Shown here: in pieces, positions 124 to 41,167 of the stretch
How the letters are laid out: every line of letters starts with the position of its first letter
How positions within the stretch are numbered: position 1 is the first letter of the stretch
Assembly: GCA_937924445.1 (NCBI GenBank)
Contig: CALDSX010000058.1
Location: 1-41,167, forward strand
Reading direction: 5' to 3'
DNA from: an uncultured Chthoniobacterales bacterium
Lineage (GTDB): Bacteria; Verrucomicrobiota; Verrucomicrobiia; Chthoniobacterales; CALDSX01
DNA: 41,167 nt
Position numbers and translations under genes: made by a program
Notes under the pieces: generated by a model
Database searches by the model: none
What the model was told of the DNA's origin: nothing
Seen by the model: only the letters and a program-made list of their open reading frames with translations

Positions 124-220
124 GGCGAGCAAGATACGGCAGGCACCCCTGGTGAATCCAGCAAAAAACGAACTTTTTTCTGTTGCGTTCGGGGGGTAAT
201 CTATTCTTCAGTTACTGATG

Positions 221-235
221 GTCCCATGGTGGGAC
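221..235. repeat. Short perfect inverted repeat
   Basis: GTCCCA and TGGGAC form a 6-bp stem around TGG. It lies upstream of the DUF4338 start and next to the larger hairpin at 256-278. It could be part of a mobile-element end or an operator. Confidence 0.35.
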
Positions 236-255
236 TACCTGAGCAGTTACAGAAA

Positions 256-467: not shown

Positions 468-2048
468 GTGAAAAATAGCGCCATAACGAGCCTTCTACCT
501 GAGATGTTTGGAAGCCTAGAGAAATTCCCGCTTGGTGTCGAGCTTGTCTCGACGCGGGGAGCTATGAGCCACAAACACACCGTCAAGGTGCGGGAATTTG
601 GTGAGGTCCTTACTCATTCGCCTTTGGTTGATTGGGTCTCGATCACCGACAATGCGGGAGGTAACCCCCAGATGGCACCTATGGCCCTGGGGACACCAAT
701 TCTTTATGCCGGCAAGGAGGTGGTTATCCATCTGACATGTAAAGACCTCAATCGTCACGGGCTTGAAAGTCAACTCTGGTTACTTTCGAGCCAAGGCTTT
801 CACAATCTGCTCGCAATGACCGGGGACTATCCGATGCACACCTTTCATGGGCGCGCAAAACCGGTTTTTGATATTGATTCAGTGGCGCTCCTCGCAATGA
901 TTCGCCGGATGAATGAAGGCGTTGAGATTGATGGTCGAAACGCCGGAATTAGTCGTCGCTTGGATGGAACGCACTTTTTTGCTGGAGCAGTAACAAACAG
1001 TTTCAAAGCGCAAGAGAACACCCTCTTGCCGCAGTATTACAAGCTTGAGAAGAAGATTGAAGCTGGTGCCAAATTTATTATCAACCAAATTGGGTTCGAT
1101 TCGCGAAAAGCGCAAGAGCTTCTGGCCTATATGGATTGGCGGGGTTTTGGAAATGTCCCGTTAATCGGTAATGTTTATTTGCTCTCGCCTTTTGTTGCTG
1201 GGCTGTTTCACGATCAAAAAATTCCTGGCGTGGTTCTTTCAGACGCCTTGTATGAGGTCTGTCGAAAACAGAGTAAATCGCCAGACAAAGGAAAATCATT
1301 TTTTCTGGAATTTGCGGCCAAACAGATTGCCATCTACCGCGGGCTAGGCTACAGCGGAGCTTATCTTGGTGGCGTTCACTCATCCTCTGATCTTGAGCGC
1401 ATCCTTAGCATTGAAAAGGCGTTTGCCCCTGACGATTGGCGAGTTTTTGCGCGCGAAATCTCCTTTTCACGTCCTGGGGAATTTTATTTTTTCGAGTCAG
1501 ATGGAGAGAGTGGCCTTTGCAGCCCTGGAAGAGTCAATCCGGAGTTGAGGAAATCTCTGCAAAGTCGCCAGCGCACCAAAAATGTGACGTTTGGATATGC
1601 CTTGTCCAAAGCATTTCATAAACTCATGTTTGAGCGAGGGCATGGGCTCGCCAACATAGGAGCTGCAATCTGTGCCACAAGAGATGAGAGACTGGACGTT
1701 CCTGGTTGGCTGCGCACCATAGAGCGGGTGTCCAAGTCGTTGCTCTATCAATGCCGCGATTGTGGCGATTGTTCGCTGGCAGAAACCGCATTTCTTTGCC
1801 CGGAATCCCAGTGTGCAAAAAATCAAAGAAACGGACCTTGTGGTGGAACTCGTGGCGGCCTTTGCGAGGTTCACGATTACGAATGTATCTGGGCACGAGC
1901 CTACGATCGGATGAAAGCCGATGGTCGTTCAGAAGAACTTCTTTCGCACGCACCTGTTGTTCAAAATCAGGGTCTTCGTGACTCGTCCGCATGGGCAAAT
2001 TTTTGGCTTGGGCGAGACCACACAAACTCGACAAACAAAAAAGAATAA
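468..2048 (+). CDS. Methylenetetrahydrofolate reductase with fused MetV-type C-terminal domain
   Basis: Predicted 526-residue cytoplasmic enzyme reducing 5,10-methylene-THF to 5-methyl-THF, or running the reverse oxidation. Residues about 18-330 form the MetF-like FAD barrel, with GVELVSTRG near residue 23, a TGDYP motif at 118-122 and KPVFDIDSV at 131-139. Residues about 420-480 form a cysteine-rich domain like MTHFR_C/MetV, with Cys 429, 432, 435, 444, 449, 458, 466 and 473, a likely metal or iron-sulfur site. In acetogens MetF and MetV are separate partners; here they are one chain. The GTG at 468 gives the full frame; an ATG at 504 is an alternative. The next gene starts 22 bases downstream, so the two are probably co-transcribed. 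It is distinct from the roughly 300-residue housekeeping MetF, which points to a catabolic or corrinoid-linked role (inference). Confidence 0.85.
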   Translation: MKNSAITSLLPEMFGSLEKFPLGVELVSTRGAMSHKHTVKVREFGEVLTHSPLVDWVSITDNAGGNPQMAPMALGTPILYAGKEVVIHLTCKDLNRHGLESQLWLLSSQGFHNLLAMTGDYPMHTFHGRAKPVFDIDSVALLAMIRRMNEGVEIDGRNAGISRRLDGTHFFAGAVTNSFKAQENTLLPQYYKLEKKIEAGAKFIINQIGFDSRKAQELLAYMDWRGFGNVPLIGNVYLLSPFVAGLFHDQKIPGVVLSDALYEVCRKQSKSPDKGKSFFLEFAAKQIAIYRGLGYSGAYLGGVHSSSDLERILSIEKAFAPDDWRVFAREISFSRPGEFYFFESDGESGLCSPGRVNPELRKSLQSRQRTKNVTFGYALSKAFHKLMFERGHGLANIGAAICATRDERLDVPGWLRTIERVSKSLLYQCRDCGDCSLAETAFLCPESQCAKNQRNGPCGGTRGGLCEVHDYECIWARAYDRMKADGRSEELLSHAPVVQNQGLRDSSAWANFWLGRDHTNSTNKKE

Positions 2049-2070
2049 CCGAAAAAATCCAACCCCACTA

Positions 2071-2994
2071 ATGATCTACGCCGATAAGCCCCTCGTCATC
2101 GGGGAATTAATGAATAATTCCTACGCTCGTGCTCGCACCGCCTGGCAAAATCGTGACCTCGACGGCTACCGTCACCTTGCGAGATTGCAAACAGATCTGG
2201 GCGCCTCGTTTTTAACATTTAATGTGGATGGAACACAAAAACTGAAGGTCACCCTTGATGAGATGATCGAATTTCTGCCTGCCGTTATCCCGGCCATTCA
2301 GGAAGTTACGGATCTCCCGATCAGTTTTGACAATCCCGCACTCGCTTTTCATACTGAGGCAATCCGCCATTTTGATCGGGCTAAAAGCCGAGGAAGACCA
2401 ATTCTCAATTCTCTCTCGGTGACACGTCAAGACGTTGATGGAATGATTGAACTTGCCGCGACCAATGACATGGATGTTATTGTAATGGCCTCTGAATGTT
2501 TTGGGGCCAACGGCACCCACAAGCCTGCCACAACTGTTGAAGATATCGTTGGCACTGCCTTACATTTTTCTCGTTTGTTATGGGAACGCGGGGGAATAGA
2601 TCCCGCACGAATCATAATTGATCCTGGCTTGTGTCCCATCGCCTCAGATACAAATGGGGGTGTGAATTTGTGTCTGGACGCTATCACGGCTTTGCGAGCA
2701 TGCCCTGATCTTGCCGGTGTGCACATTTCCGTTGGTCTTTCTAATTTTTCAATTGGATCACCGAAAGAGTTTCGAGTTCCTTTGGAACAGGCCTTCCTCC
2801 GACTTGCTTTGGATGCGGGCCTCGACTACGCCCTTGCTAATCCGGAGAAAAACACAATTCCTTTGGCGGCTGACGATGATCTGGTTTGTAAATTGAAAGA
2901 AGTTCTTGCACAAGGCCGACACCTCGATGGGGAGGATGCTGAAGACGCCGGCTACCGTCAACTCGATGCGCTGATGGAACTATGGTCCGAATGA
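2071..2994 (+). CDS. Methyltetrahydrofolate methyltransferase-like protein (pterin-binding family)
   Basis: A 307-residue TIM-barrel protein of the pterin-binding family, which includes dihydropteroate synthase, the MetH folate domain and the acetogen methyl-THF:corrinoid methyltransferase AcsE. Recognisable parts are an N-terminal VIGELMNNS (residues 9-17), PISFDNPA and ILNSLS in the middle, the IIIDPGLCPI segment, and GLSNFSIGSP near the C-terminus, which resembles AcsE more than FolP. The frame is open upstream to 1921, but ATG 2071 lies just after the preceding stop and gives the family's normal length. No Shine-Dalgarno is visible. Downstream of a MetF-MetV fusion, it probably moves the methyl group between methyl-THF and a corrinoid protein. 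No corrinoid protein gene lies in the window, so the partner is unknown. Confidence 0.8.
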   Translation: MIYADKPLVIGELMNNSYARARTAWQNRDLDGYRHLARLQTDLGASFLTFNVDGTQKLKVTLDEMIEFLPAVIPAIQEVTDLPISFDNPALAFHTEAIRHFDRAKSRGRPILNSLSVTRQDVDGMIELAATNDMDVIVMASECFGANGTHKPATTVEDIVGTALHFSRLLWERGGIDPARIIIDPGLCPIASDTNGGVNLCLDAITALRACPDLAGVHISVGLSNFSIGSPKEFRVPLEQAFLRLALDAGLDYALANPEKNTIPLAADDDLVCKLKEVLAQGRHLDGEDAEDAGYRQLDALMELWSE

Positions 2995-3030
2995 TTTTCG
3001 CCCCTTTGCGATTAGGAAGCACCTAAGACT

Positions 3031-4323
3031 ATGCACAACGCTGCGTCCTCCACTGGGGCCCTACGCATAACTCTAAAAGAATGTGACAACGGCCAACCTA
3101 TCTGGTTGCGCGTTAGTATGCTCTTTGACGCGCCAAATGCGAGCTTTATCCCTGATACGCATTTGGTATATGACAAAACCGGATTTCTCCATGTTTCAAA
3201 AGAAACTCCGCCTCCGGACTTAGTCAAAGGTGTGCAAATGATTAATGCACGCGAACTGGCCGTGCTGCCGCTGCTGTTTGATGCCCATACCCACATCAGT
3301 ATGTGTGGTGGTGAGCTTCATGCAGACAAGAGATCAGCGGCTTTGTTACGGCAGCCAGCCACAATACTTGCAGAAGCGCAACGAAGAGCTCAATGTGCAT
3401 TGGCAATCGGAGTCGGCGGTATGCGTGATGGTGGCGACAAGGATGGCGTTGGCCTCGCCCTGTCAAAAACATCCCGTATTCCAGTCGAGAAATCTCACAT
3501 GCCCTTGGTTATGAGCCCTGGAGCGGGCATCCACCGCAAAGGGCGTTACGGCGGATTTTTTTGCAGCCCTATAGAGGATCATGCTTCTTTGGATGATGTC
3601 GTTGCAAATCGTTTTTCCAACGGAGCGGATCATTTGAAGATCGTGCCAACCGGAATCATTAATTTTAAGAAGGGGGAGGTAAGCGCTGCACCGCAATTAA
3701 ATGCAAGAGAGATTTCTCTTTTTGTATCCCTTGCCCACAGAGAGGGAAAGATGGTTATGGCACATGCCTCAGGTTCTGAGGGGATCGGCAACTCTGTTGA
3801 GGGCGGTGTTGATACTGTCGAACACGGGTATTTTGTTAAGCCCGAGCAGCTTGAAATGATGGCTGACAAGAAAATCGCATGGGTTCCAACATTTGCACCT
3901 GTTTACCGTCAGGTTGTCCATGCTGACATTATGGGATGGGATGATCTTGTACGCGGACAATTGCAAAGGATACTAGACGATCATGCCAAGAGTCTGCAAT
4001 ATGCCCTTCGTGCAGGAGTTCGGGTGCTTATTGGCAGCGATGCAGGGTCTTATGGTGTTTCGCACGCTTTCGGGCTTGTCGAGGAGATGCGTTTAATTGA
4101 GGAGTCTGGCATGTCGACAACCGATGTGTTAGCGACTGTTTGCTATCATAACATATCCCACCTTGCTCCATCACTCCCGCCGCGTCTTATCAAGCCGGGA
4201 CATCCTGCCACTTTCTTGGTTACATCATCTAGTGTCGCTGCTTCCGTTAAACATTTCAGAGATCCGCTTGTGATTGTCGGTGGTCAGCCTAGGTCAGTTC
4301 CTGAAAGCACCGACTTGCTCTGA
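3031..4323 (+). CDS. Amidohydrolase-superfamily metal-dependent hydrolase
   Basis: A 430-residue protein with the full metal-site layout of the amidohydrolase superfamily: DAHTH with His 86 and His 88, Lys 203 in HLKIVPTG as the likely carboxylated lysine, His 245 (MAHASG), His 265 (VEHGYF) and Asp 337 (GSDAG). It resembles the imidazolonepropionase/prolidase-like branch. No signal peptide, so cytoplasmic. AGGAAG lies about 10 bases before the ATG. It is third in a plus-strand run, 36 bases after the methyltransferase gene, which suggests it acts in the same one-carbon pathway, perhaps releasing or trimming a cyclic amide substrate (inference). The substrate cannot be read from the sequence. 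Confidence 0.85.
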   Translation: MHNAASSTGALRITLKECDNGQPIWLRVSMLFDAPNASFIPDTHLVYDKTGFLHVSKETPPPDLVKGVQMINARELAVLPLLFDAHTHISMCGGELHADKRSAALLRQPATILAEAQRRAQCALAIGVGGMRDGGDKDGVGLALSKTSRIPVEKSHMPLVMSPGAGIHRKGRYGGFFCSPIEDHASLDDVVANRFSNGADHLKIVPTGIINFKKGEVSAAPQLNAREISLFVSLAHREGKMVMAHASGSEGIGNSVEGGVDTVEHGYFVKPEQLEMMADKKIAWVPTFAPVYRQVVHADIMGWDDLVRGQLQRILDDHAKSLQYALRAGVRVLIGSDAGSYGVSHAFGLVEEMRLIEESGMSTTDVLATVCYHNISHLAPSLPPRLIKPGHPATFLVTSSSVAASVKHFRDPLVIVGGQPRSVPESTDLL

Positions 4324-40908: not shown

Positions 40909-41167
40909 GTTTCAATCCGCGCCCCGCGATTACTCGCGGGGCGACCTGTTATCCATTTTGAAAATTCTCCTTCAGGATGGTTTCAATCCGCGCCCCGCGA
41001 TTACTCGCGGGGCGACGTTTTATTCTCCTGTCCGCTATCATCATACTCGAGTTTCAATCCGCGCCCCGCGATTACTCGCGGGGCGACTCGTCCGCTGTGG
41101 TCATACCCGGAGGAAATAAAAAGTTTCAATCCGCGCCCCGCGATTACTCGCGGGGCGACCTGTTATC
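40909..41167 (-). CRISPR. CRISPR array, four identical 37-base repeats, truncated by window edge
   Basis: Repeats are at 40909-40945, 40980-41016, 41051-41087 and 41123-41159; all four are identical. Spacers are 34, 34 and 35 bases, and a fourth is cut after 8. On the plus strand each repeat begins GTTTCAATCC and ends GGGGCGAC. The repeat contains a perfect 10-bp stem (CGCCCCGCGA with TCGCGGGGCG) around TTAC. Read on the minus strand it ends in ATTGAAAC, a common crRNA handle, and the loop becomes GUAA. This supports minus-strand transcription with the leader beyond the right edge. Repeats of this style are often found with type I-C, and sometimes type III, systems; no cas genes are in the window. 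Confidence 0.97.

What the first reader, a model, noticed from the sequence alone, without database searches (positions are those of the whole stretch)
468..4323. A one-carbon trio: MetF-MetV fusion, methyl-THF methyltransferase and an amidohydrolase
The first two enzymes are the folate side of methyl-transfer systems used by acetogens and demethylating bacteria. Here they are followed at 22 and 36 bases by an amidohydrolase with a complete metal site. No corrinoid protein or primary methyltransferase is nearby. The set may serve breakdown of a methylated, cyclic-amide compound through methyl-THF, or recycling of a folate-like compound. I do not know this combination as a described pathway.
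Basis: partly seen in the sequence, partly recalled or inferred. Interest (0 to 1): 0.65.

Follow-up and report, generated by a model that had tools for sequence, protein, structure and literature searches.

The report
Folate half of a B12 demethylase
The three genes are the folate end of a vitamin-B12-dependent enzyme system that appears to strip methyl groups from an unidentified compound; about thirty other bacterial genomes carry the same unstudied amidohydrolase next to the same methyltransferase, so it is a real but unexplained part of the pathway.

Summary
The trio is real: a MetF-MetV fusion (468-2048), a methyl-THF:corrinoid methyltransferase (MeTr, 2071-2994) and a binuclear-metal amidohydrolase (AH, 3031-4323), gaps 22 and 36 bases. 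"No corrinoid gene nearby" is an artefact: the window starts at base 1 of a contig that breaks at a repeat found at least 40 times in the genome. The same genome carries, on contig C18, a corrinoid protein, two URO-D-type methyltransferases, CobW, DUF1638 and the reductive activator RACo. In the closest relative (L128) that set follows the AH directly. Across 36 AH loci, MeTr lies directly upstream in 30 of 35 that can be judged, often with 4-base overlaps; 23 have a URO-D gene and 20 a corrinoid gene. The proteins co-vary (r 0.77-0.84; permutation maximum 0.50). This is a corrinoid demethylase system of known general design with one added part absent from the described systems I read. The AH folds like N-acyl-amino-acid hydrolases and is not imidazolonepropionase. 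It follows MeTr whatever the URO-D class, so it more likely acts on something common, such as folate, than on one methylated substrate; its reaction is unproven. Sugar genes flank several loci.

The parts
468..2048 (+). metFV: methylene-THF reductase fused to a C-terminal MetV (DUF5981) Cys-rich domain, 526 aa, GTG start
   Evidence: PF02219 and PF12225; 51-68% identity to relatives; 8 MetV-domain Cys invariant in 27
2071..2994 (+). MeTr: methyl-THF:corrinoid methyltransferase (MTII), 307 aa
   Evidence: PF00809; PDB relatives 4o0q, 2yci, 3k13; catalytic D87, N113, D184, N225 conserved
3031..4323 (+). AH: amidohydrolase, HxH-K-H-H-D metal site, family motif GAxIHxxGRYGxF, 430 aa
   Evidence: PF01979; model pLDDT 91, nearest folds 3mtw, 2qs8, ochratoxinase; ligands 34/34
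160..255 (+). Dispersed repeat (at least 40 copies, mostly near contig ends) at the left edge, probably the end of an insertion sequence; it explains the contig break

Best explanation
The trio is the folate half of a four-component corrinoid demethylase. A URO-D-type methyltransferase (MTI) moves a methyl group from an unknown substrate to a corrinoid protein kept active by RACo; these parts are on contig C18 in this genome. MeTr (MTII) passes the methyl to THF. MetFV oxidises methyl-THF to methylene-THF; FolD and PurU, present in the genome, take it to formate (no formate-THF ligase was found). The AH is a dedicated cytosolic hydrolase of the carboxypeptidase/prolidase/ochratoxinase branch of the superfamily. 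Its most likely target is an N-acyl-amino-acid type amide common to all versions of the system, with folate or p-aminobenzoyl-glutamate as first candidate. Shown: gene content, order, conservation, metal site, fold class. Inferred: direction of flux, methyl substrate, AH substrate. The confidence given is for the demethylase system; for the folate-side role of the AH alone it is about 0.4.
For: Domains of the trio. Own genome: corrinoid protein, two URO-D proteins, CobW, DUF1638, RACo on C18. L128, the closest relative (66/69/48% identity), has MetFV-MeTr-AH-Corr-URODtrx-CobW-DUF1638-RACo in one run. Ten loci have 4-base overlaps at both the MetFV-MeTr and the MeTr-AH junction. MeTr directly upstream of AH in 30 of 35 judgeable loci, URO-D within 10 kb in 23 of 36. 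Co-variation r 0.77-0.84, none of 5000 permutations above 0.51. AH stays with MeTr across three URO-D classes, in loci without URO-D, and without MetFV (L131, L121). FolD 20/20, PurU 34/40 genomes over cut-off. URO-D MTIs with corrinoid protein, MTII and activator are an established design (PMC13222342); an aerobic analogue with MetF2, RamA and DUF1638 is shown in PMC12478193.
Against: C18 and C58 are not shown to be neighbours: both abut the same end of the repeat and no target-site duplication matches. No substrate is known. The AH was not found in the described corrinoid systems I read, nor in sister MetFV loci with a LigM-like GCV_T protein or formate-THF ligase. It diverges faster than its partners (48% against 66-69% to L128), which fits a substrate-side enzyme too. 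Genomes already have PurU and FolD, so the AH is not needed as a formyl- or methenyl-THF hydrolase.
Confidence: 0.75

Rival explanations
1. Substrate-side AH: it cleaves an amide, ester or lactone in the methylated compound (or in the demethylated product), and the rest of the system removes the methyl group.
For: Fold class cleaves N-acyl-amino acids and aroyl amides; AH diverges faster than MetFV and MeTr; conserved with URO-D in 23 of 36 loci.
Against: The AH follows MeTr rather than the URO-D class, and 33 polar positions are over 93% conserved across all classes, so one common substrate is more likely. Flanks hold sugar genes, not amide or peptide genes, with few exceptions.
Confidence: 0.33
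2. Split methionine synthase: MetFV reduces methylene-THF, MeTr methylates the corrinoid protein, and a homocysteine module makes methionine, perhaps alongside demethylation as in Ruegeria.
For: Six loci carry a PF02574-type homocysteine-methyltransferase gene, five of them with the NCG...GxCC cysteines and one cut off by the contig end; the own-genome B12-binding hits include no frame long enough for full MetH; dual function shown in PMC12478193.
Against: Closest relative L128 and contig C18 have no such module nearby but two or more URO-D methyltransferases. The genome keeps a separate canonical MetF. MetE and PF02574 were not searched in the genome.
Confidence: 0.15
3. Chance neighbours: an ordinary prolidase-like amidohydrolase lying beside two C1 genes.
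For: The AH superfamily is large; the window alone shows only proximity.
Against: Recurrent order with overlapping genes in Verrucomicrobiota and in MAGs labelled Acidobacteriaceae, Phycisphaeraceae and Hydrogenedentota; co-variation.
Confidence: 0.02

Closest known systems
URO-D-type corrinoid methyltransferase systems (MtvB/OdmB/VdmB O-demethylases, MtoB, CdmBCA; PMC13222342)
   Same: MTI of the URO-D superfamily, separate corrinoid protein, MTII of the MeTr family, RACo-type activator
   Different: URO-D sequences are remote (best PDB hit of the C18 URODtrx protein is the methylcobalamin:CoM methyltransferase 4ay7); MetFV fusion and AH are in the operon; no formate-THF ligase found in the own genome, so it is not an acetogen-type outlet
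Ruegeria MtgBCD/MtgE glycine betaine demethylase and split methionine synthase (PMC12478193)
   Same: Separate pterin-binding MeTr, corrinoid protein, dedicated second MetF, RamA and DUF1638; in some relatives a homocysteine module
   Different: MTI there is pfam06253 (MttB type), here URO-D; no MetV domain and no AH mentioned in the passages read
MetV-containing (type II) methylene-THF reductases (PMC8760232)
   Same: MetF plus Cys-rich MetV
   Different: Two domains of one chain here; separate subunits in the acetogens described in that paper
Amidohydrolases of the Cc2672 / Xaa-Pro dipeptidase / ochratoxinase branch (3mtw, 2qs8, 8ihq, 4c5y)
   Same: Fold and complete metal site
   Different: About 20% identity; the GGHADP loop of these enzymes is replaced by a GRYGxF loop conserved in the family

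Membership tests
URO-D-type corrinoid demethylase system | MTII of the MeTr family | tested here: met
   window 2071-2994
URO-D-type corrinoid demethylase system | Corrinoid protein with PF02607 + PF02310 | tested here: met
   C18 4848-5501, other contig
URO-D-type corrinoid demethylase system | MTI of the URO-D superfamily | tested here: met
   C18 5392-6795 and 6822-8189
URO-D-type corrinoid demethylase system | RACo-type reductive activator | tested here: met
   C18 9879-11462
URO-D-type corrinoid demethylase system | All parts form one linked locus | tested here: inconclusive
   Met in L128, L039, L041, L043 and others; in this genome on two contigs not shown to be adjacent
URO-D-type corrinoid demethylase system | Demethylation of a known methyl donor | not testable with these tools
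   needs biochemistry
Imidazolonepropionase (HutI) | Family-level sequence and fold match | tested here: not met
   No NCBIfam hit to that family; first at Foldseek rank 46. PDB chains labelled imidazolonepropionase such as 8yag are ochratoxin-type amide hydrolases
PurU-like 10-formyl-THF hydrolase replaced by AH | PurU missing where AH is present | tested here: not met
   PurU over cut-off in 34 of 40 genomes, own included
Xaa-Pro dipeptidase / Cc2672-type carboxypeptidase | Curated family cut-off | tested here: not met
   NF051886: 83.6 bits against a cut-off of 500
MetVF-type methylene-THF reductase | MetF domain plus Cys-rich MetV domain | tested here: met
   PF02219 + PF12225 over cut-off; 8 Cys invariant
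MetVF-type methylene-THF reductase | Ferredoxin-dependent activity | not testable with these tools
   needs purified enzyme

The most novel reading that the evidence does not exclude
A B12-dependent demethylase for O-methylated sugars or uronic acids (such as O-methyl-rhamnose or 4-O-methyl-glucuronate) in Verrucomicrobiota and neighbouring phyla, with an amidohydrolase as a fifth standing component that services the folate carrier. Sugar genes next to it: a mannonate-dehydratase-like gene at L139 with homologues at L039 and L041, a GH106-like gene next to C18, rhamnose isomerase at L128, rhamnulokinase at L149 with homologues at L140 and L154, 6-phosphogluconate dehydrogenase at L142.
Probability: 0.2. 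Interest if true: 0.78.

Novelty: new variant of a known kind. Interest (0 to 1): 0.55.

Why it matters
Corrinoid demethylases are known mainly from acetogens, methanogens and marine alphaproteobacteria. This places a full URO-D type system in polysaccharide-degrading Verrucomicrobiota, where I found no description of one in the papers searched. Most URO-D methyltransferases have no known substrate, and the flanking sugar genes give a testable direction: how bacteria remove methyl ethers from plant and algal sugars. The conserved amidohydrolase is a component that the described systems I read do not have; if it serves the folate carrier, folate upkeep would be an overlooked cost of this kind of catabolism.

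Tried and rejected
AH as imidazolonepropionase: rejected. AH as stand-in for PurU or the FolD cyclohydrolase: weakened, both are present in AH genomes. C18 and C58 as the two sides of one insertion-sequence copy: tested through target-site duplications, no match, and both flanks abut the same end, so adjacency is not claimed. Genome-contig scan with MeTr as a single sequence: nothing; the AH alignment worked. Plasmid searches gave only remote MetV or MetH-like hits. The 28-32% AH relatives in Desulfobacterota and Bacillota do not sit with C1 genes and were left out of the family. Literature: no paper found that joins MetF/MetV, MeTr and an amidohydrolase, nor corrinoid demethylation of sugars; the library holds open-licence papers only. 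The second structure job and two fold searches were not used.

Full report
Observation. The first protein holds PF02219 and PF12225 (MetF + MetV), the second PF00809, the third PF01979. NCBIfam puts the second nearest to methyl-THF:corrinoid/iron-sulfur protein methyltransferases, below the curated cut-off; the third matches Xaa-Pro dipeptidase far below cut-off and not imidazolonepropionase. The residues expected for function are conserved: eight Cys in the MetV domain, D87/N113/D184/N225 in MeTr (matched to the Moorella MeTr site from memory), and H86, H88, K203, H245, H265, D337 in the AH.

Why no corrinoid gene was seen. The window is contig C58 from base 1. A 96-base repeat at 160-255 has at least 40 copies in the 127-contig assembly, most of them close to contig ends. 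Searching the genome found on contig C18 (11.8 kb) a corrinoid protein, two URO-D proteins (one with a C-terminal thioredoxin-like domain), CobW, DUF1638 and RACo, all co-directional, next to a GH106-like gene on the other strand. C18 and C58 both abut the same end of the repeat and show no shared target-site duplication, so they are not shown to be neighbours.

Relatives. MetFV orthologues (E below 1e-40) occur in 31 of 388 genomes of the phylum, but only the own genome has a MetV domain among 57 order-level relatives, so the trio is a rare possession in its order. The phylum is Verrucomicrobiota: G078 contig C32 and record DIYN01000031.1 (Verrucomicrobia UBA6053) have the same length of 158,075 bases, and their trio genes show identical match scores. 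A scan of named genomes with the AH alignment gave 43 loci: about 33 close ones, nearly all Verrucomicrobiota, with MAGs labelled Acidobacteriaceae, Phycisphaeraceae, Planctomycetota and Hydrogenedentota, and about ten remote ones that do not sit with C1 genes. Over 36 loci (including genome-sample loci and the window), MeTr is directly upstream of AH in 30 of 35 where it can be judged (one of them, L156, has a divergent MeTr); exceptions are L141, L146, L148, L153 and L170. URO-D genes lie within 10 kb in 23, corrinoid proteins in 20, RACo in 19 (my counts from those tables). Ten loci have 4-base overlaps at both junctions from MetFV to AH, which suggests translational coupling. In L128 the order is MetFV-MeTr-AH-Corr-URODtrx-CobW-DUF1638-RACo: the window trio and the C18 set in one run. 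Distance matrices of the three proteins correlate at 0.77-0.84, best of 5000 permutations 0.50; shared descent contributes to this figure, so it supports joint inheritance, not function by itself.

URO-D classes. The URO-D proteins fall into at least three groups at 38% identity: A (L039, L041, L139, L155, L169), B (C18, L128, L150 and others) and C (11 loci). The AH accompanies all three, and loci with no URO-D in reach, and loci where MetFV is missing but MeTr and AH stay (L131, L121). In the genome sample all seven genomes with a strong AH match have it beside MeTr or one gene away. Thirty-three polar AH positions are over 93% conserved in 34 sequences. This is the main reason to place AH on the common (folate or corrinoid) side.

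AH structure. The model is confident (pLDDT 91, pTM 0.92). Nearest solved folds are the Lys/Arg carboxypeptidase Cc2672 (3mtw), Xaa-Pro dipeptidase (2qs8) and ochratoxin hydrolases; imidazolonepropionase first appears at rank 46. In the aligned enzymes a GGHADP loop stands where this family has GRYGxF, so the substrate is probably different. Ochratoxin A is an aroyl-phenylalanine; p-aminobenzoyl-glutamate is an aroyl-glutamate. That is the reasoning, from general knowledge, for putting folate-type amides first among candidates; it is inference.

C1 outlet. FolD was found in 20 of 20 genomes tested and PurU over cut-off in 34 of 40, including the own genome; formate-THF ligase was not found in the own genome and in only 6 of 20. 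The simplest route is methyl-THF to methylene-THF (MetFV), to 10-formyl-THF (FolD), to formate (PurU). Three class C loci (L140, L149, L154) carry an FdhF/YdeP-family oxidoreductase downstream (one member tested). Because PurU and FolD are there already, the AH is unlikely to be a plain formyl- or methenyl-THF hydrolase.

Substrate clues. Sugar genes flank several loci: a mannonate-dehydratase-like gene at L139 with homologues in the same cluster at L039 and L041, a GH106-like gene beside C18, rhamnose isomerase at L128, rhamnulokinase at L149 with homologues at L140 and L154, 6-phosphogluconate dehydrogenase and a DHDPS-family protein at L142. These bacteria are rich in such genes and I did not measure the background, so this is a lead only.

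Relation to known systems. The design MTI (URO-D), corrinoid protein, MTII, activator is established (PMC13222342). A system with MeTr, corrinoid protein, a dedicated second MetF, RamA and DUF1638 is shown in Ruegeria for glycine betaine and methionine (PMC12478193); six AH loci also carry a homocysteine module, so a dual role is possible there. I found no paper that describes the AH as part of any such system. Verdict: a new variant of a known kind, with one unexplained conserved component.

Noticed in passing
window 160-255; at least 40 copies in the genome (C44, C97, C18 and others): A 96-base repeat, 82-100% identical between copies, sits mostly within 0.4 kb of contig ends, probably the end of an abundant insertion sequence that breaks the assembly.
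   Followed up: partly
L036 10562-12783, with homologous gene clusters at L037 and L038: Sister MetFV genes are followed by a GCV_T-domain protein that looks like LigM/DesA (from memory) and by PurU: a corrinoid-free, THF-dependent demethylation set in the same family of bacteria.
   Followed up: partly
L044, L045, L046: MetFV-MeTr followed by formate-THF ligase instead of AH; at L044 and L045 also GH2-type and URO-D-type genes.
   Followed up: no
L055, L058, L059: MetFV beside homologues of acetyl-CoA synthase genes (identified by Pfam at L059) in other members of the phylum, suggesting a Wood-Ljungdahl pathway there.
   Followed up: no
L155 4904-6160, L139 11810-13075, L039 4896-6128: A 410-420 aa operon protein with no Pfam hit; motifs (VLPHxSPGYPxWD, CxxCxxxxCxYRR) recall the methionine synthase activation domain. 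Split in two ORFs in class C loci.
   Followed up: partly
L140 15463-17781; homologues at L149 and L154: An FdhF/YdeP-family oxidoreductase downstream of the demethylase operon, a possible formate outlet.
   Followed up: no
window 40909-41167: Tandem-like direct repeats at the right end of the window.
   Followed up: no
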